A DNA stretch of 64,000 bases, taken from NCBI GenBank assembly GCA_963922205.1, contig CAWUHX010000232.1, positions 535,191 to 599,190 of the forward strand, read 5' to 3'. The notes under the pieces are model-generated. The model was given only the letters and a program-made list of their open reading frames with translations. It had not been told where the DNA came from and made no database searches. This DNA comes from Romanomermis culicivorax. Lineage: Eukaryota > Nematoda > Enoplea > Mermithida > Mermithidae. Of the stretch, positions 1 to 44,531 are shown piece by piece. The position numbers were made by a program, and so were the translations under genes. Every line of letters starts with the position of its first letter. Position 1 is the first letter of the stretch.

Positions 1-1
1 A

Positions 2-547
2 TGAGCGAAAAACTAAAGAAACATGTCCTTTTAAGGACATGTTTGGCTACAGCTGCAGCTTGGGTGGAGTTTCTCGGTGCTCAAGCTAACTTCTGCAGCT
101 AGACGCGATGCAGAAGATGCCTATGAGCACATAGACATTTTTCGTTCACATGCGTTTAGCGCTGAGGCCGACTGCAGTGCCTATGCTAAGCATATGAACG
201 TCTTTAGCTAAACTTCTTAGCTAGTCGTTTTTGCGTAACAAAAACGACGCTAATTTTTGGTGATAAGAGGTGCATGGAATGCACCAAAAATAGCCATGTG
301 CTCGTGGAGCACGACTGGCGGAAGTTTTTAGCTAAAGGGCCTACTGTAGCCCGCGTTTGTAAAGAAATAAAAATACAACAAAACGAAACATAGAAATGCA
401 TGAAAAATATAAAAACGAACGCAAAATGCATGTGTAAAAATGAAGTAACAAAACATGATCGAGTAATAAACGAAACATGAAAGAAATAACAAAAATGTCG
501 GCATGATCAGGATCACGTGACGTTGGAGAATTGAGCGGCACGTGACA
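2..547 (-). repeat. Element A 3' LTR
   Basis: This is the downstream LTR in element orientation. It matches 14716-15261 base for base at a constant offset of 14714, apart from two substitutions. It starts TG and ends CA on the plus strand. Minus-strand ORFs within it are AT-rich shadows and also occur in the other copy. Confidence 0.95.
224..312. other. Run of three perfect hairpins inside the element A LTR
   Basis: Three inverted repeats sit within 90 bp: 224-248 (arms GTCGTTTTTG and CAAAAACGAC, 5-nt loop), 269-285 (GGTGCAT and ATGCACC, 3-nt loop) and 298-312 (GTGCTC and GAGCAC, 3-nt loop). A fourth perfect palindrome with 12-bp arms lies near the LTR edge at about 22-47. The same structures recur in the other LTR at about 14938-15026. 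They could fold in the RNA or bind dimeric factors; function unknown. Confidence 0.8.
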
Positions 548-1065: not shown

Positions 1066-3357
1066 TTACGGGTCGGGGACCTCTGCATCAAGATGTGGGT
1101 CAATCAGATTCGGTGTAAAGTCCCGGCTTATTGAGGGATACAATAAGGGTGCCGAACCTGTTGCCTGTGAAGTGGGAGGTGTATCCTCTGCTTCACTCGG
1201 TTGTTCAGGGGACACGTAAAGTCGAAGCTGGTTGACATGTACAGTGTCTTCCTGATCCATCTCGAGACGAAGTGTGACATTGGGATATGCCACACTTGTT
1301 ACAAGGTAGGGCCCATCGTAGATGGGCAGTAATTTAGGAGTGAGTCCACGTTTGCTGGAGGTGCGCAGTTTGAGCACCTGATCCCCTACTTTGTACGAGA
1401 CATCATGTGCCCTCCGGTCGTACGACCGTGCATAGGCTTCCTGTGCTTTCTCAATCCGACTCTGGATTAAGGTTAACGCATTCGTGAAATGACGTTTGAC
1501 CTCCATATCATATGAGGAAACATTAATGATATGGGCCGGAGGGTTGAATGAGAGCGCGGCATCAACAGGGAGCATGGGTGTGCGACCGTACATGAGTTCA
1601 AAGGGCGAGTACCCTGTTGACTCATTCATGCTGATATTGACGGCAAACACAGCGTATGGTAGGTGTTCATCCCAATCGGTATGTCCTTGATGAACATACA
1701 TACGTAGCCGTGTGGCTAGCGTCTGATTAGCTCTTTCCACTTCGCCGTTGGTCATCGGATGATAGGCGGTAGAGTGGATTTTCTTCGTTGCGCAGATCGC
1801 AGTGATCTCAGTCATCAGTTTTGATGTGAAATCAGTGCCACGATCTGACTGAAGAATCTGCGGTGCCCCGTGCCGGCAGACAATTTGCGTTACAAACAGC
1901 CGGGCTATGGTGTGCGCAGTGATGTCCGGAGTAGCAAAAGCCTCGACCAATTTCGTAAAGTAGTCGATGAAGACTAGGATGAAACGGTTGCCAGCTTCGC
2001 TAGTGGTCATGGGTCCCATACAGTCGACACCTACCCGGTGAAACGGTCCCGTGATGGTGATAGGTTTCAGGGTCGCAGTGGTTTTCTGTCGAGCGGGCTT
2101 ATTCCGTTGGCAAAGATCACACCGCTGACAGAAGGACTTGACATCCCGACTGAGGGAAGGCCAGTGGTATCTGCGAGCAATGAGCCGCGCAGTACGTTTA
2201 GCACCAAAGTGTCCAGCTAAGATGTCATCATGATGGGCCCGGATAATGGTAGTAACCATGGATCGGGGTATGACAATCTTATTGGACTCGCCTGTCCATT
2301 TCTGAAGAACGTTAGCCAACAGATGGTAGCCGCGCACATCATTCTGGTCGCCCAGAGGCTTAAGGGAGCGAATGATGTTGGCTAAGTCCGGATCCTCCAG
2401 CTGAGCAGCGAAAAGGTCGGGGTGCTGCGCACCAACCGATATCTCGGCATAAGACTCTGATCGTACCGGGCGCTCCGCGCCAACAGTGATCGGTGCTGAA
2501 TTACTTGAACGCGCCAGATGCTGCACACCATCGGTCAAGGTTCTTGATCTCGCCAGGTGCTGCGCACCATCGGTGATCATCATAACATGCCCCTCAGGTC
2601 TGTGGAGGGGAGTATCATCAATACTCTGACCGGTGAGGGAGTTAGGATCCGGCAGGCGTGATAATGCGTCAGCATTACCATTAGACTGACCTTTTCGCGG
2701 CCTAATTGTCAGTTTGAATTCGGTGAGCGCGAGTCCCCACCGAGCGATCCGAGCAGAGGGGTTAGGCTTCTCCAACACTGCTTTGACCGTGGTATGGTCA
2801 GTCTGAACGACCACCTCATGCTGGAAGAGGTATGGCCGAAAATGCTTGACGTAATGGACAACAGCGAGAGTCTCCAGTTCTGTAATGGAGTAGTTTTTCT
2901 CGGCCGCTGTTAACCCTCGGCTGGCGTACGCGACAGGATGGTCGTATCAATGTTCGTCTAACTGGCTAAGAACCGCTCCTATCCCCGAAATACTCGCATC
3001 AGTTTGAAGGATAAAGGATTTCGAAAAGTCCGGATGGCGCAGGATAGGAGGGTTGGTCAGCAGGCGGCGGAGTTCATCGAACGCCTCCTGCTGAGGTTTT
3101 GACCACTGGAAAGTAGTTTCCTTCCGTAAGAGCTTGGTGAGTGGCTCGCTGAGCCGGGCACAACCAGGGATGAAAGGCCTGTAGTAAGACACGAGGCCTA
3201 GGAAGGACTTGATGTCTTTGGTGTTTTGTGGAATGGGTAGGTTTTGGACGGCAGCCAGCTTGGCTTGGTCAGGTTCTAGGCCGCTCTGTGAGATGCGATA
3301 GCCTAGGTACTCTACCTCTGAGTGCGAGAATTTGCACTTGCTCAGTCTGAGCTTCAT
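1066..3357 (-). pseudogene. Element A pol, 3' part: RT thumb, RNase H, integrase (one in-frame stop)
   Basis: This frame continues reverse transcriptase after the 3354-10205 ORF and overlaps its stop codon by 4 nt. The first 136 codons carry the thumb (KCKF, YLGY) and the start of RNase H (LQTDAS). A TGA at 2947-2949 interrupts it, after which the same frame stays open to 1066. The next part holds the rest of RNase H, an integrase zinc-binding H-H-C-C domain (cysteines in FCQRCDLC), the integrase catalytic core with D (VDCMGP), D (QSDRGTDF) and E (NGEVERANQ), and a C-terminal GPY/F-type segment (YDGPYLV). All catalytic residues that I can identify are present. The stop and the upstream frameshift would prevent a full-length Pol unless recoded. 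Confidence 0.9.
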
Positions 3358-6300
3358 TCCACCCCGGCGAAGACGGGGAACACATCTGCCAGGCGCTCAA
3401 GCATTTGGGTGTGAGAGTTCCCGAACACCAAAATGTCGTCGAGATAAGTCAGAACCGTGCGCCATTGGATTCCAGTAAGGAGGAGGTCCATAAGGCGTTG
3501 AAATGTCCCTGGCGCGTTGCATAAACCGAAAGGCAAATAATTGAATTCGTAAAGTCCAATAGGCGTATTAAATGCCGTCTTTTCCTTATCCGCCTCGGCA
3601 ATCGGGATTGACCAATAAGCGTTAGCCTGGTCAAGGGTAGTGAAATATTTCATACCCTTGAGTGTGTCGAGAATGTCATCTATCCGTGGGAGAGGGTAGA
3701 CATCCTTTTTCGTGACCTCGTTAAGACCACGAAAGTCAACACACATACGGTGAGAACCGTTTTTCTTGCGCACCAGGACAGTATTAGTAGCCCACGGAGA
3801 CGTGCTCGGCCGAATAATACCTTTCTCCTGGAGCGCCTTGACCTCCTGCATGATGAGATCCTTTTCCTTAGGTGAGGACCGGTAAGGGAAACGGCGGACT
3901 GGGCGGGCATCGCCCGTGCTGATTTCGTGCTGGACGAGATCAGTGGAACCTGTGTCCTTTTCATCAAGAGCATAAAGGTCGGTGTATGCAACCAGCAGAT
4001 CGAGTAAGGCTGCTCGGTCCCGATGGGAGATGTCCGGTGAGATTACAGCATTGGCCTCGACCCACTGACGATCGAGGACGGTGTCTGAGTCGACCGGTGA
4101 TTCCGGTGAGGGCTCACTATGCATCTGCACATGACCGATGGTCGTGTGAGGGTAGAGAACCACGGAATGAGTACTCGGGTTGACTACCTGAAGTGGTATG
4201 TGACCGTTGGTCACGCTACTCACGCTTCCAGCGAAATATACGTGTCTTTGAGATCCGGTGAGGTGCTTCGGAAAGAAGGCCACCTCAGGCACGTTCGTAT
4301 AGATTGGTGGGACAGGGACAGTGAATCGTGTCAGGGAGCGAGGCTCTAGAATTACCAAGTCCTTCAGGGGCAAAGCGCCGCGGGCAGAAGGTGGGCTGTG
4401 GATGAGACCGTCACAGGGGATTCTACTTTCTTTGAACTGGAGGAAGGATTTCTCCCAGTTCAAGCTGACACAATTGAACCAGCCGAGGAAGTTGGTTCCA
4501 AGGACCAGTTCAGCTGAACAGTTCTCCTGTATTTGGACCTGAATCCGTTCAGAGACATCAGCCACTGTAACTGTGATGTAGGCTGCTCCTAGCAGTGGGA
4601 TCGGGGACCCATTGGCTGCGATAGGGCGTGCCCTGGTTGGTGATAGTGACAAGTTGGGCAACTGGGCCGCTAACTTGTGGTCCAGGAGTGAGAAAACAGC
4701 TCCTGTGTCGACCAGTGCCTTCGCTTCTACCCAGTTGTTGAGGAGAACTTTGATATGGGGTGTCCGAATATCATTTGGGTAAAAAGCGGTGACCACATGA
4801 CCGGAATCAGGTGTGGTGGCACCACAAGCGTGTTTGGTCTTACCGGACCGCTTTGGAATCGGCAGTCCCGTACGACGTAGAAGACCTACTAGAGCATATC
4901 CGATGGAGGGTTCCGGGTCATTCAGAAGGGTGGACTCATCCTGCACCGTTAGTATGTGGTCTGAGTGATCCTTCGGACTCTGAGTAGCTCCTAGTGATTC
5001 AATCTTGGTGTCCGATAGCGGAGGCGCGTTTGGCACGGGTGATGCCGGAGCATCTGAATCACTTGGCTCACGGTATCGGCCCTTCTCTAGCGTGACTGGA
5101 GAGGTTCCAGGCGGAGGTCGAGGGCAACCTGACCCGTGCAAGGTCGACAGATGACGACTTGCCCGTCTAGAAGAGGCCCGGGATCCCCTAGTCGACCCAC
5201 GTGATGAGGCAACTGAGGAGGCCCGTGAGTGTGGCCGAGAGATGGACGAAGCCCTGGACCGCGATCGTGATCCCGACCTGTGTGAGTTTCGCGAGAGAGC
5301 ACGGGTGTTCTCCCACCAGGGGTCGATCTGGTCAATCTCCGGCGTGGTCAGTAGGAGGGGTAATTCTACTGTGTCCAGCCGACAAACATTACGTTGGTAG
5401 TCAAACATAATGTTCTTGAACTGTTCTAAGAAGTCCAGTCCGAGTATGAGGTCAACAGGTGCCCAGAAGGGAGACGTAGTCTTGCACACATGGAGATGTA
5501 TATCGATCCGTGTGTTCGGCTGGTGGTTTCCGGGCAACATGATTTCATATGGTCCCGAGAGGATGGTATGAACGGCTTTACCATTGATGCTCATCAATGG
5601 GTTAAAGTCGTGATGTTGCTGGAACGCCATGACCGCCTTCGGACTTTCTTTAGCCAAGGCTTTATGAAGGCGTTGGCTAATGATAGTGCGGGGGCAACCC
5701 GTGTCAAGGAAAGCAGGAGTTTCCTTGGTGTCCAGCAGCACGACGAAACACGGTGTGATTCGGTCAAGCTGGGAGGGCACATCGTTTTGCACGTAGTGAA
5801 AACCGACCCAGCGTTGGACTTTGCGGTAAAGACCCAACGGGGAGAAACGGCTAACAAACCTGACCTGTTTGCTCCGCAGACGGTAGCTGAGATAATAAGA
5901 TACACCGAGATAGGCAAGGTATCCGACACCGATCAGCACTGTCAGGGTAATTAGGATGTTAAAGATCAGCTGGACCAGCCCGCTCAGGACAGCATGCAAG
6001 CCCTGGGCGAGGGTGTGTTGTTGACCCGTAATAACATGGTTTGCTGCCAAACCGACACCTTCCAGAGAGGCCTTGATGTCGGTTCCTACCCCTGCAAAGG
6101 CCTGGTAGATGGCGTCTGGTTGCAGGGATAGGCCAGCGGTAAAGTTTACCAGCCGGTTGAGTTCCGCTTCAATTTGCTCAGTCTTGTAAACGTACTGTTT
6201 AAAGAAGGCAAAGTTTGAAGGGGTCATCGCCAACTGGTCATGGAAGAGCCCCGGTTCCTCAAAGTGAGTGATGTTGAAACGCTGCTTCCAGAAGAGTTCC

Positions 6301-9300
6301 AGTGGGATGTGGCTCACATGGACCGCGCCAGACTCAGTAAACCAGCCCGAGCGATTTCGGAAAATCCCTGTAAAGTGGTGATGGCACGGCACAATTGGGC
6401 TAGATTTAATGAGATCCGGACCACCGGGGGTGGCGAAGTAGATGGTGCCGCCAACCTGTACAGGTAAGTACTTGTAGCAAACGTTCCCCACCCGGTACGA
6501 GTGGTAAACGTAGGTGGCGTTGACCTTCTGACACGGCCATATTGTCAGCGCATCGCCGGTGAATTCCGCCGTCAGGTCATTCCTCTGGAGGAATGCCCGG
6601 GCACCCAAGGTAGGGTCGAAGCGAAGCAACTGCCAAGTCAGATCAAGATAGCGTTGAGCCTGAGAGCAGAGCTCAAGCCATGTGAACAAGAAACCGTTAA
6701 TTTCCGACTCTTTGATCTGCTGAGCCAGATAGTTCAACTTGGCATTGACAGGATCGTGACGGCTGTCCTTTGCCACTTTGAACAAGTTTTGGGTCAAATT
6801 GTATCTCCCGTGGATGCGAAGGAGAAGACCCTGATCCGTCTGGACTGTGGTGGAACGTAGTTCTGGGCACAGTTGGAAGACGCCGGAGTTTCCCGGGATC
6901 TTGAGGGCAACCTGTAGATCATCGATGATGACGTGGTTCCCTGACATGGACGCAGTGTAATTTCCCTTGGGGTGATAATGACACCGCGCTGTGAAGTTTT
7001 GTGCAGGCCAGACAATGACCCCGTCTAGAGTAGTGCACTGGCCTGCAGTGGGACTGCATCCACCTACATCGCCTAAGGTGCTTAGGGCCGTAGTGCCGTC
7101 CCACGAAGCCACTTGTCCCTCCTGGATGAAGAGGTTAGTCACTGTCTTGCAGACGTCGCTGCAGCACCATTCGTACATCACTTCCAATGTTTGGTTTGTG
7201 CTATAAAAGCCAGGGCGAACGCCGACCAGTTTTTGTGAACCAAACATCTTAGTGCGATGTGCTAGCGTGCATGCCGCAGGCGCTAAGTGCTGAGTGGTGA
7301 TGACGTCTGCAGTGATGCCCCTAGAGCCGAAGAAACCAGTGTTGGTGCAGACTTTGCGGGAGCGCAATGTGCATTTCCACGCTGTGGCTGTGATCGGGTC
7401 TGAACTAGGGACATACACCGTAACATTCATGCGCCGCGGGCTCCATGAAGATTGCGGTGGTTTACACTCTACACGCTGGGGTAACTCAAGTGGATGTCCG
7501 CTTCTTGAGAGACCGCAAAATTGATACTGAGCCGCCGGTGCTGACAAACTCACCCCTAGAAACAGTGATGCTACCAAGGTCAATTTTATTGTCAAAAACA
7601 ACTGTACAAACGTAATTTGTAAGTGTTCACTCAATTTCACAAATCTGGCCTGAGGGGCAGTGTCAGATTTCTTCTTCGTCGCTGTCGGACGAGATTGGTT
7701 CCTGGCCGGGGAAATCGAGGACCAATCCACCGCACGGGTGGATTTCCCGGAGGATACCGATTTTTGGCGACCGTGGGGCGACTGCCGTTGGGAACGGAGA
7801 TTCCTCAACGATGCTGACATCTTCGTTAACCGGACGTAAGGTCTCGTCGACGGCCATGTGTTCGACGACAGGCGACTTGGTCGCAGCGGTCGGAGATGTC
7901 GTTTGGGCTGGCGCCGGCGATTTGACTTGGGCTGTTGCCGACGATGTATCTTGGGCTGTTGCCGGCGGTGTAGGATCATTTGCGGGTTCCTTGGCCGGGG
8001 GTGAGGAAGCAGTAATGTCCATTTTTGTTGGCGATGTCGCGGCAACAGGTGGCGCTGCTGCCGGTGATGTAGCGGCGGCAGCAGGCAGGAGGATCCGACT
8101 GGCCTGTTCGACTGCTCGGCGGACGGCATCGACTGAAGGCGAGGATGGCTCCCCGTCCAATAAGAACTTCTCGACGGGCGAGATGGTGATAGTCCCATTG
8201 GCAATGAACTCGAGTGCCCGTCGGGCGACGTCGGGTCGTAAGAGTCGCATCGAGACGGGTGCTGCAAGCATGACATCGGCGGCCGTGAGCGCTTCGACAT
8301 GCGATGGCTCGTTGAGCAGAGTCCACGGCAAATGCGGGTATTTCTTGGCCAGGTCGACTGACCAGATGGCCAACATCGCGTCTTGGACGGGCGATGGCGC
8401 TGTGAACAAGAAATCGATAGAGTCGTGGACTGAGATAGATTTCTAGTTCCTACTCTAGGATCACCTGAAGAAGAAGGTAGTATACCTGACAAATTCATGG
8501 GCTCAACCTGGTCGAGGACTTCCGTAGCCGAATCCGTGGGGATCGAAGGCGGTGGTCCTGGAGGGACGATGCGGGCCGGTGGCGCCGAAGACGTCGTATT
8601 CGCGGCTGGAGCTGGCTCGGCAGTCTTAATTTTAGGAATGCGATAGGATGGGAGGATGTTAGCGTGGCCAACAAACTGCGGTGTCGTCGAGGGGTCCAGA
8701 GTGACCGGCATCGCATACTTTGGTGGTGGTGGTGGCAGCGGTATGTCCGATACATTTATCGGTATGGGTACCTGGGCTGCTTGGACCACTGAAAATCCAA
8801 TACTGATTACACAGACAGGATAACACTGTTGTGAAGAATCTGTCAGGTGTTCAGCGAGTGCCTCATCATCCAGGTCAAGAGGATCTGGATGAGGAGGGCC
8901 ATCGGTAGCCCCAACGGCGTTGTTGCGGCGTATGGGCTGCCGATATTGGTTTCCTATCCCGTTAGGAGGGTGATAACCATTTCTTTGATGATACACATTT
9001 GTCCCCTGGGAAGAATAACCAGTATCTTGGTAGACATTCTCACCCCTGTTTGCCGGATTGCGCTGCGGACAGGCAGTCGATCGGTGCACTCGCACTTGAC
9101 GACAATGAGGGCATGGCCTATCACATCGGTCCGTGGGGTGGGCACGTGTACGGCAAAAATAACAGCGACCACCGTTAGCGGCGTTGTTACCGGGAGCGGC
9201 ACCGGTGGGACGCTGGGCCCGGCAGTCGGCGTCGCTATGTGTACACAGTCCGTGGAAGGAGCACGTTTGAAGGTGTGCTCCCGACGAGCGTCGCCCGGCG

Positions 9301-10205
9301 GACTGATTTGGTGTCGACGGCTGTGGAGGCGGCGTCTGTTGGATTGGCGCGGGTGCACGTTGCTGGGCCGTGAGCTTCGCTACGTGGGCCATGAGCCTGG
9401 CCATTTCCTGTTTCAAGCGGCGAACCTCATCGGCGGACGATGACGACGTTGGAGCGTTGCTCTGACGACCGTTTGCGCTTCTGTTAGGCATATCGGGATT
9501 ATATCCGGCGTGTTTAGGTTCTGAAGAGAAAACGGGGTTAGATGGAGCAGTGTACCGGATCTCGTCCCGAAAGATTTGGGATTCTGCGTAACAGGCTGCC
9601 TTGAGTGTCTCTTCAAGAGTCGTGAACTCCCTAAACTTGATACTATCTCGGAGGACCGGCTTCAGTCCTCGCAGGAAGATAGGTTTGATGATAGAATCTC
9701 GGACATCCGTCGCGAGATCTGGATTTGCTACCCTGGATAGTCTCTTGAGGTGCTCAAGGTAGACTATCGCGGACTCTGTCGGCTTCTGCAGTCGATCTTG
9801 GATCAGCTGCTGATGCAGATCAGAGTCGCGCCCTACCGGAAAATCTCTCCGTAGAAAAGCCGTAAACTCTTCGTAGCGGGTAGGTATCGGAGTGCTACAG
9901 CTAAAGTCCCGGTAGGAGGCAAGAGCAGGACCCGTGAGGCATGACTCCAGAAAGGCGATTTTATACGCATGATCCGTTTCGCTTACACCCTGGAGTGTAC
10001 AGAAACCAGTAAGATGCGACATAAAATCGGTGATAGACTCACCAAAAGCACCGGAGAAGGTGGGAGGGGCCATAAAGCTGGACACGGGAGGGTGCCTCCG
10101 ACCATTCATGGCCTCTAACTTTTGGTTGAGGGGTCCAAGAGCATTCTCAAATGCTGCCTGGACTTTGTTCTCGATCTGTGAAGGGAGATCAGCTTCCGAC
10201 TTCAT
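3354..10205 (-). CDS. Element A polyprotein: Gag - Env - protease 1 - protease 2 - RT
   Basis: A 2283-codon ORF starts at an ATG at 10205. Domain order by residue: Gag capsid-like about 1-300; three zinc-knuckle motifs about 314-378; proline-rich linker to about 590; Arg/Ser/Pro-rich stretch about 590-850 overlapping another open frame; signal peptide and Env ectodomain about 855-1400; transmembrane segment about 1405-1437; retropepsin 1 with DTG at 1501-1503; RS-rich linker about 1640-1690; retropepsin 2 with DTG at 1833-1835; RT fingers and palm about 2105-2265 with YLDD starting at residue 2254. The frame ends early because of a 1-nt shift between palm and thumb near 3375. An env fused between gag and protease in one ORF is not the normal arrangement in Ty3/gypsy elements or retroviruses. 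Confidence 0.9.
3380..3930 (-). CDS. Element A reverse transcriptase, fingers and palm
   Basis: The RT domain shows the standard Ty3/gypsy blocks in order: [78 protein letters not shown] and the catalytic YLDD (3435-3446). The frame is lost after YLDD by a 1-nt shift near 3370-3385; thumb and connection continue in the overlapping frame that begins at 3357. Confidence 0.93.
4400..4770 (-). CDS. Element A aspartic protease domain 2 (retropepsin)
   Basis: A second retropepsin has [12 protein letters not shown] (DTG at residues 1833-1835, bases 4701-4709) and a C-terminal LVLGTNFL motif. It matches the single protease of element B (IIDTGAVYSLID) closely, so this is the ancestral protease of the lineage. 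It is followed by a conserved spacer (with VYFAGSVS) and then RT. Confidence 0.85.
5150..5330 (-). other. RS-dipeptide-rich linker between the two protease domains
   Basis: The polyprotein here is a run of Arg-Ser repeats (for example [20 protein letters not shown]) over about 50 residues. Such basic low-complexity stretches resemble SR-type regions that bind RNA or direct nuclear entry; role here unknown. It is in frame with both flanking proteases. Confidence 0.7.
5370..5790 (-). CDS. Element A aspartic protease domain 1 (retropepsin)
   Basis: This domain lies about 50 residues after the Env transmembrane segment. It has the retropepsin active-site motif [12 protein letters not shown] (DTG at residues 1501-1503, bases 5697-5705) and the matching C-terminal ILGLDFL motif. 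It would sit on the cytosolic side of the membrane if Env is inserted as predicted. Element B, which otherwise has the same order, lacks this copy, so it was gained in A or lost in B. Confidence 0.82.
5870..7650 (-). CDS. env: Element A Env-like glycoprotein domain, mononegavirus-type class III pattern
   Basis: Residues about 855-1445 of the polyprotein. A hydrophobic signal sequence ([20 protein letters not shown]) precedes a cysteine-rich ectodomain with many N-glycosylation sequons. Key features in order are a CGxSxSG motif, [10 protein letters not shown], a YEWCC-SDVC cluster, [15 protein letters not shown], an [12 protein letters not shown] block, an amphipathic pre-membrane segment and a transmembrane helix ([20 protein letters not shown]). 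The spacing of cysteines and the FFG and W-G-C motifs recall glycoproteins of rhabdovirus- and chuvirus-like negative-strand viruses more than retroviral Env. Capture of chuvirus-like glycoproteins by LTR elements is known in arthropods. The viral family is my inference; the signal peptide, cysteines and anchor are visible directly. The reading frame is intact here. Confidence 0.75.
7663..8446 (-). CDS. ORF X: second open frame overlapping the Gag-Env linker
   Basis: A second frame is open from just after a TAG near 8446 to a TGA at 7663-7665, about 260 codons, while the long polyprotein frame is also open through it. ORF X looks like the true protein frame here: it has alternating hydrophobic and polar residues ([28 protein letters not shown]), an Ala/Pro/Thr-rich middle and an acidic end (SSDSDEEEI). 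The polyprotein frame over the same bases is Arg/Ser/Pro/His-rich, as expected of a shadow frame. ORF X lies in the minus-1 frame relative to the polyprotein. It has no ATG near its 5' end, so it would need a frameshift or splicing. I do not recognise the product. Element B has no counterpart that I can see. Confidence 0.6.
8830..10205 (-). CDS. Element A Gag region (capsid and nucleocapsid) of the polyprotein
   Basis: Residues about 1-460 of the polyprotein. The central part matches the retrotransposon Gag (capsid) pattern, with segments such as [15 protein letters not shown] and [12 protein letters not shown]. The nucleocapsid holds three metal-binding motifs at about 9070-9263: a CX2HX4HX4C variant ([14 protein letters not shown]), a standard CCHC knuckle ([14 protein letters not shown]) and a CX2CX5HX4C variant. 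Elements B and C have the same capsid type (compare [10 protein letters not shown] here with IIKPLFMEGM in C), so the three elements form one lineage. The start is the first ATG of the long frame. Confidence 0.88.
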
Positions 10206-11668
10206 GTCCGAGGGTTCGTTTTCCCGTAAGGTGGTTAGAACAGACGTCCTTGCCCGTGAAGCAATTAAGTCAAATTGAATAGAGAGCGGCTCACTGGTCT
10301 GTACAGGCTGGGTACTGAGACAGCAGGAACGACGGGGTGTCTCTATTGTGTAAAATGAAAGTGAGTACTACTTTTGAATTCGCGGCGAAAGAGCGCGTGA
10401 ATTCGGGAAACGCGTGCGCGACGGCGTTTGTGACGTAACTTGATTTAGCTTAAGACTAGTGACCACGAAAAGGGGGCTAGAATGGAATAGGATTATAAGA
10501 TGTAAGATCAGAGTACATCAGGGTGACGCAGAAGGGAATTTATCTGGTCGCCCGTGATGGACAGAGGCATGGCCTGAGGTATGGGGGAATCGATCCCGAC
10601 CAAAAATGCAGAGTTGGGGCCTGGACCCGGCAATGGCAATAGCTGAAGTGGACGGAAGATCAGAGATAAGAGGGGAGAAGAGGCGGTTTTTCCTGCCGAA
10701 AAAAATAAGATGACGGATGAACCCGCCCAGGAGGGATTTTTCCTGGAGGTTCGACCGCTGTACTAGTTTACAAACCTTGGGGCGAGGCGGACTCGTAGCC
10801 GGCAAGATCCTACTCACCAGGAGTAGCGCATAAAGTGGCATAAGGTGAAAAGGATGGGGTCAACTGAAAGTGAACTTAAGAGGGAGCAATAAATAGGGAC
10901 AAAACTAATTTACAAACCCAGTTACGCAAAGGGGTCGCGCAGTTACGCAACGGGCCTCACTCGCCAGGAGCGATTGCGATCTCTGCATAGTGAGGTGGAC
11001 TATACAGGAGGTTCCGTGTTGGACGACATTCGCAAGTAACTTACAGCCGTGTCCGAAACGGGAGCCCGCATTCCGAACAGAACGGACACTCTCCAGGAGT
11101 ATTATATACAGCTGGTGGCCGGGTTTGCCGATCACTGCGATGAAGTGAGGTTCGCAGGTCACACAGTAGAAGAGGAAGGAGCACGGGTACCAAGGGTGCT
11201 ATTCTGACACACTCAGTCAGTTAAAATGAAATACTATGGATGTTTTGAGGGCGCACCCGAAAACATCTAAGGGATCACGGGTACAAGGTGTCCCTGGTTG
11301 AATATGAGTGTAAAATAACTGAGGCGGACGCAGTTATGTATCGAGGCGTACTCAATACCTTCGCTGAGGTGGACTCAACGGTGCCTATTATTTTACATGA
11401 CTAACAGGGGTGGACCGCGGAGGCGGACTCTGGGTCAGTGGCGACTCTAGCGCGGGCATCGTTAAGCCAGTTAACGAAGGCGTTCGAGTGAAAGAAGTAT
11501 GACAGGGGGTCCTATACACTCTAGGCCCAACCGGAGGCTGTGCCGCGGTCCCTTGGGAACCACTACGGCGGGGACACTAAAGAAGATCTATGTATGACAG
11601 CTCGATGAGATGAAAGAGAATGAGTGAATTTAGATAAGAAATTTACAAGAAGATTGCCGAACCCTTGC

Positions 11669-12703
11669 AGACGTCAGACACAGGCAGTACCGACTGCAAA
11701 TGCCTGCTGCCTGCCCGAGTTAGACAACCAACCCAGATGAGGCCGAGTGTAACTCGTTCAAACCTGCAGTTAAAGCTTGAAAACAGCCACGTGCTGATCA
11801 ACAGTGCCGCTACCCGGGCGGACAACCTGATCAGTACGCAGGCTAGCGAGCATCTCAGGTGGTGTATATATGTGGACTGATGTTTCCCAGGCATCAGCCC
11901 CCAGACACACACAAACCCTTGGACAAGAGAGGTAGGTGATAGGACCATGCGCCAGCGACCACCTACAACTCAAGTGGAATACTCATAGGGCCGACAGTAA
12001 CCTGGTGCGGACGTCAAAAGGTAGGGGTATGAACCAACACATGACCTTGGTGCTGACTGCAGGTGCCTGGGATAAGAGTATTCAAGTATCATGTCGCAGT
12101 TGCAGACGCCAGGGGTGCGTGCCTAAGGCCGACAGAACCCCTGCAGTAGCACGTAATGTTACCGTTGCGGACGTCAGGAATAGGATCATGTAGTCTCAAC
12201 TCCTACTGCGAGAACATGATACATTGTCATTGCTGACGTCAGCAATAGGGCCCTGAAGCCAGCTATCGGTATACAGCAGCACGTGATGGTGCCGTTGCTG
12301 ACGTCAAAAGGTGGAACCGAGGGTCTGATACCTTAAGTCAATGACATGAGATGCAGTTGTTGCGGACGTCAGATGTGGCACCCGTAAGACCTGCACATCT
12401 TCGAATAGCGACACGGTGCGTCACCATTGCTGACGTCACAGATGGGGTGCAGAGAACCAGCCGAATCTGTTGCAACAACGTTGGCTTCACCTGTTGCAGA
12501 CGTCAGAAGTCATTACTGCTGGAGTGTTAACTTAAACAAACAACACGTAATGTCGGTTGCTGACGTCAGGAGTAGAACCCGGAGGGCTACCCACCCCTCA
12601 AAGCAACAGCAAGTGAAGCGGCTGTTGCAGACGTCAGTGGTTGCATCCGTGAGGCTGAACCACACAACAACAACAACCTGTAACGTTGTCATTGCTGACG
12701 TCA
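11669..12703. repeat. Tandem array of about 65-bp units centred on TGACGTCA-like motifs
   Basis: The plus strand shows GTTGCTGACGTCA-type cores at a spacing of 63-68 bp. The full palindrome TGACGTCA occurs at 12234, 12299, 12431, 12561 and 12696. One-base variants (GGACGTCA or AGACGTCA) occur at 11669, 12009, 12169, 12364, 12498 and 12629. A weaker match lies at 12104. The sequence between cores is much less conserved, so the cores seem to be under selection. TGACGTCA is the consensus cAMP-response element bound by CREB/ATF bZIP factors in animals. Confidence 0.85.
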
Positions 12704-13320
12704 CAGAGCATGACCCGTAAAGTCTATGTTCGAGATGCAACAACCGGAAAGTAGGAGAAACAGACCTTACAGTAAGTAGAATTGAAGAAGAGAGAGAAAC
12801 CTACGTAAGAGTGTCATACTGTAGCAGTGGCATCCGAGAAAAGGGAAAGGAAATAACCAAAGACGGGGAATACGAGATTTGGACATACGCGTGTTAACTG
12901 TGTAAACAGTAGGTGTAAAATTTTTGGGGCTGGAAAAGTGAGCAATTCCGACAGTTTCCGCCGACAGACAAAAATACTGTACACAATTAACAAATCGCAG
13001 CCACGTATGACGTCCAGAATCATACGTGGAGGGTGTACGGTATCATGGGGTCACGGACCACCAACAGTCAGGAGAGGCCGTAAACCCCTACAGCTGTGAT
13101 ACCAGTACCCGCGTATGGGTATACTGTAGTTACAGTACGGGAATGGGCACAGGCGTACTGTAATGGCACCCACCCGGAGGGCTACAGTATACCACCCAGG
13201 ATTAGGGAAGAGGGGAGGAATAAGGGAAAAGAAAACAGATAAGGTAGTTTACAACACAGATTAAGTATGCGGAATGTACAGAATAAATCAGAGGAGAAAT
13301 ACAGAATACTCGATATATAA

Positions 13321-13381
13321 CTCAACTCTGGGACAAATAACTTGACTCTGAGGATAAATAACTCGACTCAGGGGGAATTTA
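13321..13381. repeat. Three 20-bp tandem units
   Basis: Units start at 13321, 13341 and 13361 with the pattern CTCAACTCTGGGACAAATAA and close variants. They lie inside the element A leader. No function is apparent. Confidence 0.7.
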
Positions 13382-13439
13382 TTACTCATAGGGGCAATAC
13401 ACACGCATGAGATAATTATTTACACATATAGATCACATT

Positions 13440-13800
13440 TAGATCACTCGTAAGGGCAAATCCCGTCTTACAGTAATTAAATTCGATGTTCAGGGGTAAA
13501 TTCCCGACCTACAGTAATAACTCTCGGTGGCACGGGAAAAAATTCCGACTTACAGTAATACTACGCGACGTGAGGGGAGGTATCCGACCTACAGTAGCGG
13601 TAATCCGAAATAAGGGACATTCCCGACCCATTAGGCAGTAAACCCGAATCTGGGGGGTCTCCGACTTATTGGATGGCTAGTACCCAATTTTAAGGGGGCT
13701 TGTCCGACTTAAAATGGGAGTTGACCCGACCTGGGGGTAGTTCCGACCCAAGGGTGAAGATTTTTGCACTTAAGGGCAGTGCCAGACTTAAGGTCGATTT
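13440..13800. repeat. Degenerate array with TCCGACYTACAGTA motifs
   Basis: A motif of the form CCGACYTACAGTAAT recurs near 13467, 13508, 13549 and 13589, then decays to CCGACTTA or CCGACCCA forms up to about 13800. Spacing is about 40-50 bp and units are separated by G-rich runs. Confidence 0.65.
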
Positions 13801-14439
13801 TCCAGCCTCGCCATGTCACATTTTACGCCATGTCACGTGTATGACATGTTTATTTGGGAGAGCTGGGGAGGTTTGGGTATCTCATCAGGTAATACCGTGT
13901 TTTAGACGTCACATTGATGGTGAACCATATCAGATTGATCCTATTACAGTGAGTAATAGGCTGTGACTCCTGATGGATACTGGCATTTTCCCCAGGCTTC
14001 CCAAATTGGCGTTGGGGCCTAACCTGGCAAATGGTGGCTATAGAGAGGTCTATAGTTGGTTCTCTTGTGTTGTCCTTGGGGTCTTGCTGTAGGGTAATGG
14101 ACAACGCTGCCAGGCTAGGTGCGACAATCCCCGAGTCCTACTCAGTGAGAGTGGGGACAGGGTCACCCGTAAAATGACCTAATTTGAGGGGCCCAATTAC
14201 GAACCAGACAGCCCCTTTTTAGCCCAAACCTGAGAGGTGGAGGCCCTACTTATCTGTGGAAACCTTGGGAAACCGACTCAGGAAGGATTTCCCAACAAAT
14301 AACCCACAAATAACAATAATCCCCTGAGAAGACTCACCTAGTCCTGTTTCTCAAGCAATTACGACGCAACGGGCGGCAAGTCCCTGGATGCTTTCGGTCT
14401 TCTGGCACTGGGAGCCGGGATGCGATCCTCAAAGCGTCC

Positions 14440-14690
14440 TAGCGGCGAGCGGCGGCGAGCGGGAGGGAGTGGGAGCGAGCGGGAAGCGAAACTCCAACGT
14501 TTAATTCACGAACCGGGGCGGTCGGACACCTGGCACTGATGGGCAGCGGGGGTACTGTAGGCGGTAAGCGGCGGACGCAGTGAACAAGGGTAAATTTATG
14601 CAAATTTATTGGTAGTAAGGCGGCGGACGCATGGGTGTACAATAAAATATGCTAATTCGACGAAGAGCGGCGGACGCGGAGTTACAACCG
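14440..14690. repeat. GCGGCGGACGC repeats next to the primer-binding site
   Basis: GCGGCGGACGC-type sequence occurs near 14568, 14620 and 14668 and follows a purine-rich GAGCGGG stretch at about 14440-14490. It forms the first part of the element A leader after the primer-binding site. Confidence 0.55.
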
Positions 14691-14697
14691 GACGAAA

Positions 14698-14711
14698 GCT
14701 TGGTGAACCCA
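14698..14711 (-). promoter_or_regulatory. Element A putative primer-binding site
   Basis: On the minus strand, TGGGTTCACCAAGC begins 4 nt after the 5' LTR. TGG at the start pairs with the CCA end of a tRNA, as in other LTR elements. I could not identify the tRNA. Confidence 0.6.
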
Positions 14712-14715
14712 AGAA

Positions 14716-15261
14716 TGAGCGAAAAACTAAAGAAACATGTCCTTTTAAGGACATGTTTGGCTACAGCTGCAGCTTGGGTGGAGTTTCTCGGCGCTCAAGC
14801 TAACTTCTGCAGCTAGACGCGATGCAGAAGATGCCTATGAGCACATAGACATTTTTCGTTCACATGCGTTTAGCGCTGAGGCCGACTGCAGTGCCTATGC
14901 TAAGCATATGAACGTCTTTAGCTAAACTTCTTAGCTAGTCGTTTTTGCGTAACAAAAACGACGCTAATTTTTGGTGATAAGAGGTGCATGGAATGCACCA
15001 AAAATAGCCATGTGCTCGTGGAGCACGACTGGCGGAAGTTTTTAGCTAAAGGGCCTATTGTAGCCCGCGTTTGTAAAGAAATAAAAATACAACAAAACGA
15101 AACATAGAAATGCATGAAAAATATAAAAACGAACGCAAAATGCATGTGTAAAAATGAAGTAACAAAACATGATCGAGTAATAAACGAAACATGAAAGAAA
15201 TAACAAAAATGTCGGCATGATCAGGATCACGTGACGTTGGAGAATTGAGCGGCACGTGACA
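14716..15261 (-). repeat. Element A 5' LTR
   Basis: This is the upstream LTR in element orientation and should hold the promoter. The copy at 2-547 has the same length and is about 99.6 percent identical by eye (two differences). It is followed on the plus-strand side by AT-rich unique sequence from 15262. Confidence 0.95.
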
Positions 15262-16440
15262 CAAGTAATTGAAGGCTTTCAAAAAAATTTCAGCTCGATC
15301 ATTTTCACTATGTAAAGCACAAAGTAAAATTCCAACTCGGCAAGGTGAACGCTTGGAAGCAGTGAACAATGATCGCCCCCCTATAACCATCCTACGGGCG
15401 ACGGATCAGATGGCATCCAGTAAATAAAGCCAGTAGTTAAGATCAGTCTATGTTGTGATAATTTTTTCTCTTTTTTTTGTAGGTTTACCATGTGACTTGG
15501 TGAACTTGATTTGTAAATGATATTTTCCGCCTCCCCGATAGACTTTGAGAGAATATTTTGAATATAACAACAAATAAATCCGATTGACGAAAATCTTCAG
15601 TTTCATTGTGCATCCGCTATGAATGTTTAATGAGTCCAATCTATTTCGAAATGGCAGATAAGTAAGGGCCCATATATACTTTTTTGTCGAAAATCTGTCG
15701 CAAGTGATTGCAAACATCAACATGGAACGAATATCATATTTCTGCTGTGCGCAAGCAAAATCTTGATGAGTTCTGTCCAGTGACATATATTTCACAGGAC
15801 AAATTTGCATAGTGTTGCAGATATCAGCTATTTTGTAAGCGTCGTGCGTTTCCTACGTATATCGCGTTTCCGGCGTCAAAGTTGGATTTAAAGCGCACAG
15901 TAGGTATTTGTTGAGCGTGTCGGGCATCTTTCGATCGGCAATATCGATAACTACCATGCGATGTATTATATACTGTAATATCTCTATTACGTCAAGAGCA
16001 AATCGTTTTCGTCTGTTTTTTTGCCAAAAAAGCTATAGGTGACCCTTAAGTTCAAGATGGAAAAATATCAAATAAACGAACGAGTAATGTCATTTCTGAT
16101 GGTCGCTTCGTTGCCATTGAGAAATTCAACGTTTTAGCTCCACTGAGATCATCTCTGAGAAAATTTAGCTTCTTATAAAGAGAGCTGTGATAAGTAAAAA
16201 ATTAACCCTATCTGAAAATCACATACTTGACGCGCTGGGAACGGAAATGATATTCATCTCGTCTGAAAATCAAAACTCGCATACCTACAGTAAGGCGAAA
16301 GTTGAAAATTTTCGATTTTTTCGATTTTTGACATACACTTCTTTCAACTTTTGTAGGTTTAGGCATGTCAGATATCGTGCTCTGAAAATTTACCCAATAT
16401 TAGACCAACGGATGAGTCACCATTTACTGTAGGATTCATT
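15262..16440. other. AT-rich flank with one dispersed repeat
   Basis: No gene is supported. A segment at about 15660-15850 is similar, in inverted orientation, to 46958-47155. A 120-codon minus-strand ORF at 15448-15810 overlaps that repeat but shows no recognisable domain, and the similar segment lacks a matching long frame. Confidence 0.5.
15660..15850 (+). repeat. Dispersed repeat, inverted partner at 46958-47155
   Basis: The stretch containing CTCGAAAATCTGTCG-like sequence, AAATCTTGATGAGTTCT and TCAGCTATTTTGTAAG aligns with the reverse complement of 46958-47155, with clear mismatches but no large gaps by eye. The copy near 47000 lies about 0.3 kb downstream of the mucolipin gene. Confidence 0.65.
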
Positions 16441-36402: not shown

Positions 36403-37325
36403 TGTAACGTACCTGCTAACTTTTGCAACATACCTGCTAATGTACCTACTGTAAATATATAGAATACACTATGTGATATTCATTTATTAAATATTATTTC
36501 ATTTCGTAATTTATCGTCTCAAGCGTGTCTGGGATTCACATCCAAACATTCCTGTAAAATTATGTGAAGTACTTTATTTTGATCCTTCCACACCCCAGTA
36601 GCGGCTCCTGACCCAATTAAGACGCCCCAATTAATTTGCACAATGGCAGCTGGTCCCCTAGAATCTACACTAAAATACACATTCCATGGCTACATTAATT
36701 TCTCATAAAAATTGTAAACAACACCTGCACACAGTAAAAGCCCCGCCAGACAGTAGTCTCAAGTGCAACAGTAGCGATGGTCCCACAAAACATGTGTACA
36801 CAGAAGAAATAAATACAGAAGCATGCACAGAAGCAAAGAGGTGTGGCTAAGCCCACTGTAAGAAGCAAGCATAGAGAAGACAAGAAAAGCATACAGTACT
36901 AGGAAAGCGTTGGAAGGCATGACTAAATTAGCGAGAATAACGAAGCAAGGAGCAGCGATTGGCGGACGAAGATGGACAGAAGCAAGACCTCCCGCGACAC
37001 CCAGGGAGTGGCCACAGAAGCCGTATTTAAAGAGAAGCAAAGTATGATTTAGTTAGTTCGTGCAGAATTTTGATTTTTTGAATCCGTGTGTTATTTGCAA
37101 GCGACCGTCCTTTTATTTGCAAGTGATATTTTATTCGAAAGCAGTTAAACTGAGTCTGTTTTATTTGCAAGCAGAGTGCGTGTTTTCCTTTTTCCTTATC
37201 GACGACTGAAGTGACCGTCAATTGCCTTTTCGTATTACTGTTGTTACCGTATCCCACGCCCTTGCCGACTGTAACCACTGTTCGCTTTAGGATCAAGTAA
37301 AGTATCTCCAGAACTGGTCGTTACA
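36403..37325 (+). repeat. Element B 5' LTR
   Basis: The termini TGTAAC and GTTACA form a 6-bp inverted repeat. The end is followed after 5 nt by TGGTGACCATACC at 37331, the likely primer-binding site. It shares blocks with the LTRs at 42685 and 46029 (for example TTATCGTCTCAAG and GAACTGGTCGTTACA-like ends) but is diverged and longer. Confidence 0.85.
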
Positions 37326-37569
37326 TATTTTGGTGACCATACCATATCCTTAACCACTGGAACTCCCTGCCCCAATTAGGTGCATCCTTTATCTGAGCAT
37401 CCCGAAGCATTAATTACATACAGTAGTAATCGTTTCCTACAGTAAAACAGACATTTGTAGAAAGCAAACTGAAAATCCCCTCCAACAAAACATTAAGCGA
37501 TACATTTTTACAAATACAGCGTGAAGCAAAAATTGAAGTATTGAGCAGAAATCTCAGCATAAACAAAGA

Positions 37570-38784
37570 ATGACCCATCAAACTCAAGGTCATTTAGGAG
37601 AAATCATTAGAGAACAAATAAATGACTTATTTTCTGAGCACTTTCGTACTCTGCACACACAATTGAATCAAAATACAGTAAACCCTACCCTAATTGATGA
37701 TCTAAGAACAGCAAACATTCGTAATAACATGGCAAATAATTTCTACGAGAAACCCACAGTATTCACGGGGGCGTGACCCAACATTTTATTGAATGGAATA
37801 AACATTTAGAACAGTTCATGGCACTACAAGGCATGAAAGATACAGACATACAGTTAAAGTTAGCATGCTTAGAAATTCACTTAGGAGGAGTCACGTTAGC
37901 AAAATTCAAAAGTCTAGCCAATTCCGAAAACCCTCCCAACACATACGAGCAGTGTAAAATTGCATTGCAGCCTTTTTCCCCAATAATTGAGACAATGAGC
38001 TACATCAACAATTTTTGCAAGAAAGAAAACAAAAACGATCAGAAACAGTCATAAATTTTTGTTTGATCTAGAACACCTAGCAATCCACACCTACCCCAAC
38101 TTTAACATGGATGCAGGAGAAATGATCATAAAACCCCTTTTTGTTGAAGGCATGCAAAATGAAATCAGGGAAGCAATTGAGTACAGAAGGTTCCCAACCC
38201 TAAAAGAAATGTCGGACGAAGCAGCTTACATTGAACAGCAGATCCTTAAAAATGAGCTGAAATCCAACACCCTTCCATTTATATCTCCAAAACCCGAACC
38301 CATCTTTTCACTAACCATCAATACTGATAAACAGAACCTTTTGCATCAATTAGAACAACAAGTAAAAGATTTACAGTTGCAGATCAAACAAAAATCCCAA
38401 CCCCCACAACAGAGTAACTACAACAGTGTCAGCAACAACAACACTTTTAGCAGAAATAACAGTTACAGGAACAATACTACTCTCAGGCAACCCACATGCT
38501 TTCAGTGTGGACAACTCGGACATGTAGCTCGCAATTGTAATTCAGTAGGGACCTGGAAATAATGTGAAATTTGTTTTCGTAATAATCACATTATGCGCGA
38601 TTGTAAAAGACGATGCATTTACTGCTCCTGAACAGGACATAGATCCGATACCTGCCTTTCAAAACCTTACTCAAATTTTCAATGTTTTCTATGCAAGCAG
38701 AGAGGTCACACAAGTAGGTATTGCCCCTACCAACAAAGTCGTAATATTCAAAATTGCATTGAGTACAGGCAACCCCAACCCCTA
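37570..38784 (+). pseudogene. Element B Gag
   Basis: Capsid and nucleocapsid in three successive frames: 37570-37776, 37773-38054 and 38059-38562. The capsid is closely similar to that of element C. Nucleocapsid holds four CCHC knuckles (first CFQCGQLGHVARNC) but is broken by TAA at 38560-38562 and TGA at 38629-38631. The frame then stays open into the env region at 38785. Confidence 0.85.
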
Positions 38785-41050
38785 ATGGACATTGATGACC
38801 CCCCATTTTACTCAATGCTACCCACCATAACTAACAGCCCTCAGACTACTTTAGGGACTATAATGCGGACCACCCATTGCCCCAGTCTGGAGGAATATGT
38901 CCTCAACTTGGACATCCCCCATTGGTGTGCAATGTCACCACCCCCGATGCCTGAGGCCGAAAAAACTACGAAATTGCCACCCACCATCCCCACAAATTAT
39001 AAGATTCCACGAAATCTGACTGTTACTTCACCCACAGCCCCAGAGACACCCACAAAAACTGGCCGAAACCTGTTGTCCCTCTTACACAGCCTCACCCCTG
39101 AGCCCCACAAATTCCGCCCCAGACAAACATTACTGGGGACCCCCATGAGTAAGCAAATCCAAACCCCATCCCATAACTCAACTTCTAAAGTTTCACAGAC
39201 TGTTCAGATTACAAACCGGCCAACCCCTCAGCACAGAATGGAAAAACACCACCAATGGGCACACCAAACCAGCCAGAGACAAAAAACACAATGCCCCTTC
39301 GCCTCCAATAAGAAATCATGTTGGCCTTTGTGTTGTATTTTTCTATGCATAATAATCCCTACATCCTGTAGGGCCCAATTTCAGACATGTGGAACTTCAT
39401 TGAGCGGTCACTGGGTCAGCATACCAAATATTGTATCATGCATGCCCCCTTCCACAGTAGACAAACCAGTGCAGACATTCGGAAAAATCTATATTCCCTC
39501 CACTAAACCTCACATAACAGATGCATACAAATGCAGTGTTCCCAAACGCAAAATTTGTACTAATACAGGATTTTTTGGATCAAAAGGTATTGTCTTCGAC
39601 CAAACCAAAATGCAAAATCTAACCCCGCATGTTTGTAAGGCAATTGTTATAGACAAAGAACACAACGGTCAAAAATTATACGAAACCCAACCAGGATTTT
39701 GGTCAACAAACAACTCCCTAAGCGTAGAATACACATGGTGTTGTACAGACCACTGTACCTCGGTCACTGACATCATCATAGAGATAGGACAAATAGCATC
39801 TTGGAGTGGAAAATCAATGACAAGTACATTAGGTGACCTGGGGTCATGCAAACCGACATCAGGCCATTGCCTAATGATTGATGGGTCCATTATCTGGAAT
39901 GAAACAGCATTCAAAAATCTATGCCCTTTTGAATACAAAAATATGCATCCCATGAAACTAACACAAACCCACATGATAATAGAAGAACTACAAGGTGCTT
40001 TCTCTGTCAAAAATACACTCTTTTCGAACCCCAACTGCCCAGAAATCCAAGACAGTGTCCTAACCAAACAGGGCATTGTTGTGCAGTTGGACAAAAGAAC
40101 CCCACATTGTAATGCCTTTTTAACCCCACAAATCAACGAAACTCATACTACACTCTACGATTTTGATGATTTTGAAACCCATTAACCCAAAACTAAACTA
40201 TCTAGCGTATAAAATCCAGCAATTCCAGATTCAAAATTTCAAAAACATCTGGAGTGAATTATGCAGACAGGCACAGCGTCACCTTGATTTAGTATGGCAA
40301 ATTTTGCATCTTAATGCAACCCTTGGGGCGCATGCATTCCTAGAACGGATGGACATAATAGCAGAATTCACAGGAGATGCCCTCACAGTCTGGCCTTGTG
40401 AGCAGATAAATGCATCCAAAGTCTTTTACAACCATAAAATCAATGACACATGCTACAAACTTTTACCTATTCTCGTCCGAACTGACCTCATGTTTTCAAA
40501 TCCAGGAGGAAACAATTTGACCCCTTTCTCACAAACCATCGATTAACATCACATGCATGTAGCCCTTTACAAACAGAATAATACATGGGTCAGCGAAACA
40601 GGATCCCCGCATGTCACTGATCTACCCTTAGAAATCGACTGGAACCAAAATTTCTCCCTTTTTCATTTAAACACACCCGCAATTTTTCATGATCAACTCG
40701 CAATCATTTCAACCAAGTTACTCTTTTTAAAACAATACATTTACAAAACCCACACACTCGAAAACGTTGTTAAAAAACTTGTCAATTACACCACCCAAAT
40801 GTCTCTTAACTCAGATACAGTCTACAATATGATCTCAGGCAGTGGCCAAGCCATCGGAAATACCCTCTCCTGCGCAGGTCAAGGCATATATAGCACATGT
40901 AATAACTGGCACTACGCAAAGCCTCACGGACGGGTTAAATAATTTACTCAAGGGACCCTTACAAATCATTATTAACATGGCCATTATCACTGTAGTCATT
41001 GCAGGTGCCTTTTACTCTTTTCTCATTCTTCGAACATATTTCCCATCCCC
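38785..41050 (+). pseudogene. env: Element B Env-like glycoprotein
   Basis: The homologue of the element A Env lies in the same place, between nucleocapsid and protease. A Pro/Thr-rich linker leads to a signal-like hydrophobic stretch (CCIFLCIIIPTS). Then come [19 protein letters not shown] near 39553-39588, YTWCC, GQIASWSG, STLGDLGSC, an [12 protein letters not shown] block near 40370, and a membrane anchor (IIINMAIITVVIAGAFYSFL) near 40970. The coding frame shifts near 40165-40185 and near 40850-40940, and a TAA lies at 40544-40546, so it is broken. The motif series is shared with A. Confidence 0.78.
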
Positions 41051-41289
41051 AAAGCATCATGTTACTAATGAACATATGTATGAAATACCATCACACGACC
41101 GACATTTACATGAGAACATTACCCCATCATTCAGCCATGCTCTTTTAGAGTTGGCTAATCATCGTGCGGCTCAAACTCAGCAGAAATGCGTCCTTGTCAA
41201 TATTGATACCCCCAGAACTCCTGCAATCGAACTCATAAGTCAAATTTACCAATCTGAATCAAATAAGTCACCCCAAAACATATCAGAGA

Positions 41290-44510: not shown

Positions 44511-44531
44511 CCCCAGCATGATAACAGTAAT

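What the first reader, a model, noticed from the sequence alone, without database searches (positions are those of the whole stretch)
3354..10205. Env-like glycoprotein placed between Gag and protease in one retrotransposon ORF
Seen: one 2283-codon frame encodes zinc-knuckle Gag, then a signal peptide, Cys-rich ectodomain and membrane helix, then retropepsin and RT. Known: env normally lies after pol and is made from its own mRNA. Inference: the polyprotein could thread the membrane so that Gag and Pro-RT are cytosolic and the ectodomain is luminal, which removes the need for a spliced env message.
Basis: partly seen in the sequence, partly recalled or inferred. Interest (0 to 1): 0.92.

Follow-up and report, generated by a model that had tools for sequence, protein, structure and literature searches.

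The report
Retrotransposon with envelope inside its polyprotein
A family of virus-like jumping genes carries its envelope-type protein in the middle of one giant protein, between the shell protein and the enzymes, instead of as a separate gene at the end, and a tiny optional intron seems to decide whether the shell protein is made alone.

Summary
The window copy is a ~16 kb Ty3/gypsy-type LTR element on the minus strand with a 4-bp target duplication; its envelope segment matches the Monjiviricetes (chuvirus-like) fusion model (E 5.9e-14) and lies between zinc-knuckle Gag and protease. In the same genome 74 env matches were scored; 44 lie in open frames of at least 3,090 codons. Six of these, chosen for long frames, run open from Env to the integrase stop with no 3' env. 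A second family (Env N part 39% alike) keeps gag-env-protease order (91 scored, 54 in frames of at least 2,480 codons); other database records show Gag-Env and Env-PR-RT fusions. The window copy is broken in RT. Best model: unspliced RNA gives Gag-Env-Pol, spliced RNA gives Gag alone (as in plant BARE1). Translation, topology and fusion function are inferred. Ten searches of an open-access library showed no description of this order; most subscription papers were out of reach.

The parts
13814..15261 (-). 5' LTR (1,448 bp; TGTCAC...GTGACA)
   Evidence: 99.5% identical to the 3' LTR over 1,311 aligned bases
1..547 (-). inner part of the 3' LTR; the rest lies on the contig before the window (to C232:534291)
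15262..15265 (.). target-site duplication CAAG (other copy at the outer edge of the 3' LTR, locus L049)
13802..13813 (-). primer-binding-site-like stretch directly after the 5' LTR (TGGCGAGGCTGG); tRNA not identified
10206..13801 (-). long 5' leader; longest stop-to-stop frame wholly inside it 113 codons
8486..10205 (-). Gag: Ty3-type capsid, two CCHC-type motifs; main frame under purifying selection (pN/pS 0.36)
8400..8485 (-). 86-base facultative intron, GT...AG; exactly these bases are missing in five other genomic copies
7663..8397 (-). segment selected in the alternative (-1) frame, pN/pS 0.35, ending in UGA before the Env piece; main frame open too
5871..7640 (-). Env: signal peptide core ~7601-7557, ectodomain with 16 Cys, membrane helix ~6002-5895; PF24664
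5301..5783 (-). weak first retropepsin-like domain (DTG ... LGLDFL), below every Pfam cut-off
4470..4760 (-). main aspartic protease (PF13975)
3354..3773 (-). reverse transcriptase, cut by frame loss in this copy
2950..3396 (-). RT end and start of RNase H in another frame
1066..2946 (-). RNase H end and integrase (H2C2, rve)
36496..43451 (+). degraded copy of the second family (B): LTR-like repeats ~36.5-37.3 and ~42.6-43.4 kb, Gag knuckle, Env N part in 38785-40185, Env C part + protease (below cut-off) + RT start (by eye) in 40842-42386

Best explanation
This is a Ty3/gypsy-type LTR retroelement lineage that took a chuvirus-like (Monjiviricetes) fusion glycoprotein into its polyprotein between Gag and protease. 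Unspliced RNA is read as one Gag-Env-PR-RT-RH-IN chain; the internal signal peptide and membrane helix would leave Gag and Pol in the cytosol and the ectodomain in the lumen; signal peptidase and the element's protease would cut the parts apart. Removal of an 86-base intron at the end of Gag switches the frame and ends translation just before the signal peptide, so spliced RNA gives Gag alone. Shown: order, open frames, recurrence, selected frames, and genomic copies that lack exactly the intron. Inferred: translation of the main frame through the linker, topology, processing, fusion function.
For: Order: window copy; 44 of 74 scored env matches in frames of at least 3,090 codons; 6 of 6 chosen copies: 1,601 codons from Env to the same stop, then 518-520 bases to the LTR; domains in order in one of them; family B: Gag knuckles, linker, signal peptide, Env in one frame; 54 of 91 in frames of at least 2,480 codons; P0014 Gag-Env; P0013 Gag below cut-off-Env-PR; P0012 weak zinc finger-Env-PR-RT-RH-IN in 2,327 aa; P0010, P0011 Env-PR-RT. 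Selection: Env 1-200 pN/pS 0.12, Gag 0.36. Intron: L025 lacks exactly 86 bases, 8485-8400; the exact intron-less junction occurs 5 times in the genome, reversed-pattern control 0; all five lack 86 bases there and none in the compared flanks; they are not one lineage, e.g. L025 differs from the intron-bearing L024 at 2 of 787 sites and from the intron-less L089, L090, L091 at 23, 94, 20; a junction with the alternative acceptor 8430 occurs 0 times. Selected frame changes between ~8510 and ~8376 and back at 7640. Main frame kept open: 3 stop-making changes against 8.5 expected, P 0.03, control frame 11 against 12.9; permutation 534 of 20,000 open. Precedent: BARE1, donor CAG/GTAT (PMC3735527, passages).
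Against: No RNA, ribosome or protein data. The two tests for a kept-open main frame reach only P about 0.03 each, and copies were ranked by Env score, which may favour intact ones. In family B a 50-base GT...AG segment stands at the matching place (27 of 27), but a search for its spliced junction found 0 (no positive control for that pattern), and the alternative-frame signal is weak (pN/pS 0.63, main 0.94, third 2.12). By a simple recalled matrix the family A sites are mediocre (donor rank 8 of 129, acceptor 10 of 142). Env fold not confirmed (pLDDT 38). Relatives outside A and B are single proteins without contig or host. The invariant stretch 7674-7638 is not explained.
Confidence: 0.7

Rival explanations
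1. Env-Pol is reached from spliced RNA by +1 frameshifting at the UGA that ends the alternative frame (AUC UGA C), as at many gag-pol borders. Order and fusion to Pol stay the same; only the switch differs.
For: The Env frame is +1 to the alternative frame, the UGA lies just before it, and no site varies between 7674 and 7638 in 40 sequences; the intron is spliced.
Against: In family B the main frame runs from Gag into Env without any shift (27 of 27 open over the linker); P0013 and P0014 are continuous Gag-Env frames; fewer stop-making changes than expected in the A main frame.
Confidence: 0.14
2. Env-Pol is made from its own spliced message, with a leader exon joined to an acceptor just before the signal peptide (7650), as foamy viruses make Pol (recalled).
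For: CTGACACTGCCCCTCAG stands directly before the Env piece and the stretch is invariant; a 3.6 kb leader could hold a donor.
Against: Would not need Gag and Env in one frame, yet families A and B and the records P0012, P0013, P0014 keep it.
Confidence: 0.11
3. Ordinary gypsy element with a late insertion or an assembly error in this copy.
For: The window copy is broken in pol.
Against: Clean target duplication, 74 and 91 scored family matches, selection on Env, other records.
Confidence: 0.02

Closest known systems
Anakin (BEL/Pao element with chuvirus glycoprotein, mosquitoes; PMC7642597, passages seen)
   Same: LTR retroelement that captured a chuvirus-type glycoprotein
   Different: BEL/Pao, not gypsy; the passages place the envelope of other BEL/Pao elements (Roo, Tas, Cer-7) downstream of the polyprotein (Anakin's own position not seen); here Env is inside, before protease
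Errantivirus / gypsy of Drosophila (recalled)
   Same: Ty3/gypsy pol with an envelope gene
   Different: env is 3' of pol, of baculovirus type, made from a spliced mRNA
BARE1 (copia-type, barley; PMC3735527, passages seen)
   Same: one ORF, small facultative intron (104 nt, donor CAG/GTAT) that makes a Gag-only message
   Different: no envelope; there the spliced frame stops three residues beyond Gag, here after a selected extension
Cer1 (C. elegans; PMC10309623, passages seen)
   Same: genomic RNA without a stop between gag and pol, plus a spliced message
   Different: the spliced message makes CERV; no envelope in the polyprotein in the passages seen
Alphavirus and flavivirus polyproteins (recalled)
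   Same: cytosolic capsid, internal signal peptide, luminal glycoprotein in one chain
   Different: positive-strand RNA viruses, no reverse transcription

Membership tests
Ty3/gypsy (Metaviridae) | order PR-RT-RH-IN with gypsy-type RT | tested here: met
   order in the C69 copy; its RT is 61% identical to that of P0010; a profile whose RT columns come from P0010 and P0011 matches Ty3 Gag-Pol 7q5b best, E 6.4e-31
Ty3/gypsy (Metaviridae) | Ty3-type capsid | tested here: met
   PF19259, 31.2 bits against cut-off 29.1
Ty3/gypsy (Metaviridae) | LTRs with TG...CA and 4-6 bp target duplication | tested here: met
   2 of 3 copies checked: CAAG (window), AAAT (C112); C69 shows none
Ty3/gypsy (Metaviridae) | GPY/F motif in integrase | not tested
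   not examined
Errantivirus | env 3' of integrase | tested here: not met
   6 of 6 copies, chosen for long frames: 518-520 bases, longest open frame 77-91 codons
Belpaoviridae (Anakin) | BEL/Pao-type pol domains | tested here: not met
   no BEL/Pao model among the Pfam matches
Monjiviricetes fusion glycoprotein | PF24664 above curated cut-off | tested here: met
   51.4 bits, cut-off 27, profile positions 311-449 of 653 only; also P0010-P0014, not P0009; family B N part alone has no match
Monjiviricetes fusion glycoprotein | class III fold, fusion activity | tested here: inconclusive
   model pLDDT 38; one PDB hit, envelope glycoprotein B, E 0.0082; activity not testable here
BARE1-like facultative Gag intron | short GT-AG intron whose removal ends translation after Gag | tested here: met
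   family A: five copies lack exactly the 86 bases, spliced frame ends before Env; RNA itself not testable. Family B: sites kept in 27 of 27 but no spliced copy found

The most novel reading that the evidence does not exclude
A lineage of enveloped Ty3/gypsy retroelements makes its whole virion from one membrane-threaded Gag-Env-Pol polyprotein, flavivirus-like in layout, and replaces the usual spliced env message and gag-pol frameshift by one optional micro-intron that decides between Gag alone and Gag-Env-Pol; the DNA after that intron is read in two frames.
Probability: 0.57. Interest if true: 0.92.

Novelty: new variant of a known kind. Interest (0 to 1): 0.82.

Why it matters
Retroviruses and their relatives are taught as gag-pol-env, with env from a separate message. 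An amplified lineage with gag-env-pol in one frame shows another way to become an enveloped retroelement, one that may settle Gag excess and Env expression together. It gives clear predictions for RNA, topology and particle make-up, and screens that look for env only after pol would miss such elements.

Tried and rejected
Rejected: late rearrangement or assembly join; -1 slippery heptamer at the Gag border (none in the right phase); a second intron from the end of the alternative frame into Env (no GT there; the 8485-7650 pairing gives the wrong frame; by reading). Led nowhere: AlphaFold models of Env (pLDDT 38) and of the protease region (pLDDT 32), so no fold search was made; viral contigs and genome-contig scans gave no relative; an RT tree of 13 rows groups family A with P0010 (99/98) but leaves P0012 unplaced, so one origin is neither shown nor excluded; P0005 (the alternative frame) has no BLASTP relative in P0009 or the family B piece, and no database search was made with it; the host was not identified.

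Papers: search listings (no paper). PMC12440569: abstract, one section, passages. Passages only: PMC10084718, PMC7642597, PMC3735527, PMC5408684, PMC10309623, PMC7264820.

For that reason I raised the best explanation from 0.60 to 0.70 and the novel case from 0.50 to 0.57 and lowered two rivals.

Full report
What is there. On the minus strand lies an LTR element: 5' LTR 13814-15261, 3' LTR at 547-1 and beyond the window, 99.5% alike over 1,311 bases, ends TGTCAC...GTGACA, 4-bp duplication CAAG, and a TGG-starting stretch after the 5' LTR that looks like a primer binding site. A copy on C112 has the duplication AAAT; one on C69 has none. The element is about 16 kb with a 3.6 kb leader.

The ORF. 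The frame 10205..3354 is open. Read in pieces it gives a Ty3-type capsid and two CCHC-type motifs, then a signal peptide, a Cys-rich ectodomain matching the Monjiviricetes fusion model, a membrane helix, a weak retropepsin-like domain, a clear retropepsin, and the start of RT. In this copy pol is broken: the frame ends in RT; RNase H and integrase follow in another frame with a stop between them.

Other copies. A search with the Env piece scored 74 matches (4,200 candidates, so a lower bound), 97-100% alike, 71 without a stop inside; 44 of 74 lie in open frames of at least 3,090 codons. 54 codons before the Gag ATG + 855 + 590 + 1,601 make 3,100. In 6 of 6 copies read there, chosen for long frames, the frame runs 1,601 codons from Env to one stop, and 518-520 bases without a long ORF precede the 3' LTR. 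One was checked for domains: protease, RT, RNase H, integrase in order.

A second family and other records. On the plus strand of the window a degraded element at 36.5-43.5 kb shows Gag knuckle, Env, membrane helix, protease (25.4 bits, cut-off 28.2) and, by eye, the start of RT. Its Env N part is 39% identical to that of family A. 91 matches of this family B were scored (3,865 candidates), 54 in frames of at least 2,480 codons; six 1.5 kb pieces were aligned, and in L062, the one translated, knuckles, linker, signal peptide and Env follow each other in one frame. Pol of intact B copies was not read. Protein searches found P0009 to P0014 in other records, hosts not given, so they may or may not be other species. 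Pfam order: P0014 Gag-Env; P0013 Gag (below cut-off)-Env-PR; P0012, 2,327 aa, a zinc-finger match below cut-off, no capsid match, then Env-PR-RT-RH-IN; P0010 Env-PR-RT-RH; P0011 Env-PR-RT; P0009 no match (41% identical to Env over 45% of the query). The other 13 of 18 hits bear no PF24664 label; they match through pol or weakly. In P0012, P0013 and P0014 long hydrophobic stretches flank Env; P0012 and P0013 have one short further stretch each.

The frame between Gag and Env. Variable sites among 40 family A sequences fall on third positions of the main frame in Gag and Env, but between about 8376 and 7663 on third positions of the -1 frame. pN/pS is 0.36 (Gag), 0.35 (this segment, -1 frame), 1.53 (same segment, main frame), 1.85 (third frame) and 0.12 (Env 1-200). 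The -1 frame ends in UGA just before the Env piece. Between 8465 and 8421 no frame is favoured.

The intron. A GT...AG segment, 8485-8400, is 86 bases long, and its removal joins the two selected frames. CAGGTATAC stands in 39 of 40 sequences; the fortieth, L025, lacks exactly the 86 bases. The intron-less junction occurs 5 times in the genome with 0 for the reversed pattern. All five copies lack 86 bases there and none in the flanks compared, and they differ from one another at 9 to 96 of 787 sites; L025 is nearest to the intron-bearing L024 (2 of 787), L089 and L091 are nearer to the intron-bearing L009 than to any intron-less copy, and L090 is far from all. This is what reverse transcription of spliced RNA on several occasions would leave; L025 and L092 may share one event, and exchange between copies is not excluded. 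A junction to the other candidate acceptor (8430) occurs 0 times; the junction from the other donor (8464) and the count of unspliced junctions did not complete.

Family B. A 50-base GT...AG segment stands at the matching place and in the same codon phase; 50 bases and both sites in 27 of 27; the resulting frame ends after 37 or 39 residues (TAA in L062) just before the signal peptide, and the main frame is open in 27 of 27. The tail shows the pattern of two frames read at once (variable sites 7, 13, 12), but weakly, and no spliced B copy was found (0, pattern without positive control).

Is the main frame used? In family A it is open across the segment in 37 of 40 sequences, the -1 frame in 38 of 40; synonymous permutation of the -1 frame leaves the main frame open in 534 of 20,000 trials, Gag codon usage in 1 of 20,000. 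Stop-making changes in it are 3 against 8.5 expected (Poisson 0.03), in the control frame 11 against 12.9. From Gag to Env residue 200, 32 of 40 keep the frame without a stop. No in-frame Met lies within 60 residues of the Env signal core in 5 of 6 elements, which speaks against a start of its own.

Mechanism. Best supported: unspliced RNA gives Gag-Env-Pol; optional removal of a tiny intron gives Gag with a C-terminal extension. BARE1 does this with a 104-nt intron and the donor CAG/GTAT (PMC3735527, passages). Membrane threading follows from signal peptide and helix as in alphavirus and flavivirus polyproteins (recalled), and is inference. Rivals are a +1 shift at the UGA and a separate Env-Pol message; the invariant stretch 7674-7638 would fit either.

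Known or new. The parts are known: gypsy pol, a chuvirus-like glycoprotein (Anakin, a BEL/Pao element, took one up: PMC7642597; PMC10084718 reports no clear gypsy case; passages), optional Gag introns. The order is not described in what ten library searches showed; most subscription papers and repeat databases were not searchable. I class it as a new variant of a known kind.

Noticed in passing
window 5301-5783 (-): A second retropepsin-like domain (DTG, LGLDFL) between Env and the main protease in family A; two collinear stretches resemble Ddi1 protease (E 0.0018), but no Pfam model reaches its cut-off. P0010 to P0013 show one protease each in Pfam.
   Followed up: partly
window 7674-7638 (-): 37 bases without a variable site in 40 sequences, spanning the alternative-frame stop and a CCCCTCAG before Env.
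   Followed up: partly
window 8397-7663 (-): The selected alternative-frame Gag extension (~245 aa, P0005) has no Pfam match; no database search was made with it.
   Followed up: partly
window 43452-46871 (+): Short element with LTR-like repeats ~3.34 kb apart; its two ORFs scanned match a Gag model (below cut-off) and zinc knuckles, not Env or RT; perhaps a non-autonomous derivative of family B.
   Followed up: no
window 24656-29433 (+): Another degraded gypsy-type element; two of its five ORFs were scanned (RT, RNase H), no Env looked for in the rest.
   Followed up: no
L052 1-4782 against L053 1015-5788: 4.8 kb repeat between the two flank pieces of the C125 copy, longer than an LTR; perhaps neighbouring elements.
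   Followed up: no
window 58170-63705: Inverted repeat arms of ~0.7 kb, 87-96% alike, around 4 kb; looks like a DNA transposon.
   Followed up: no
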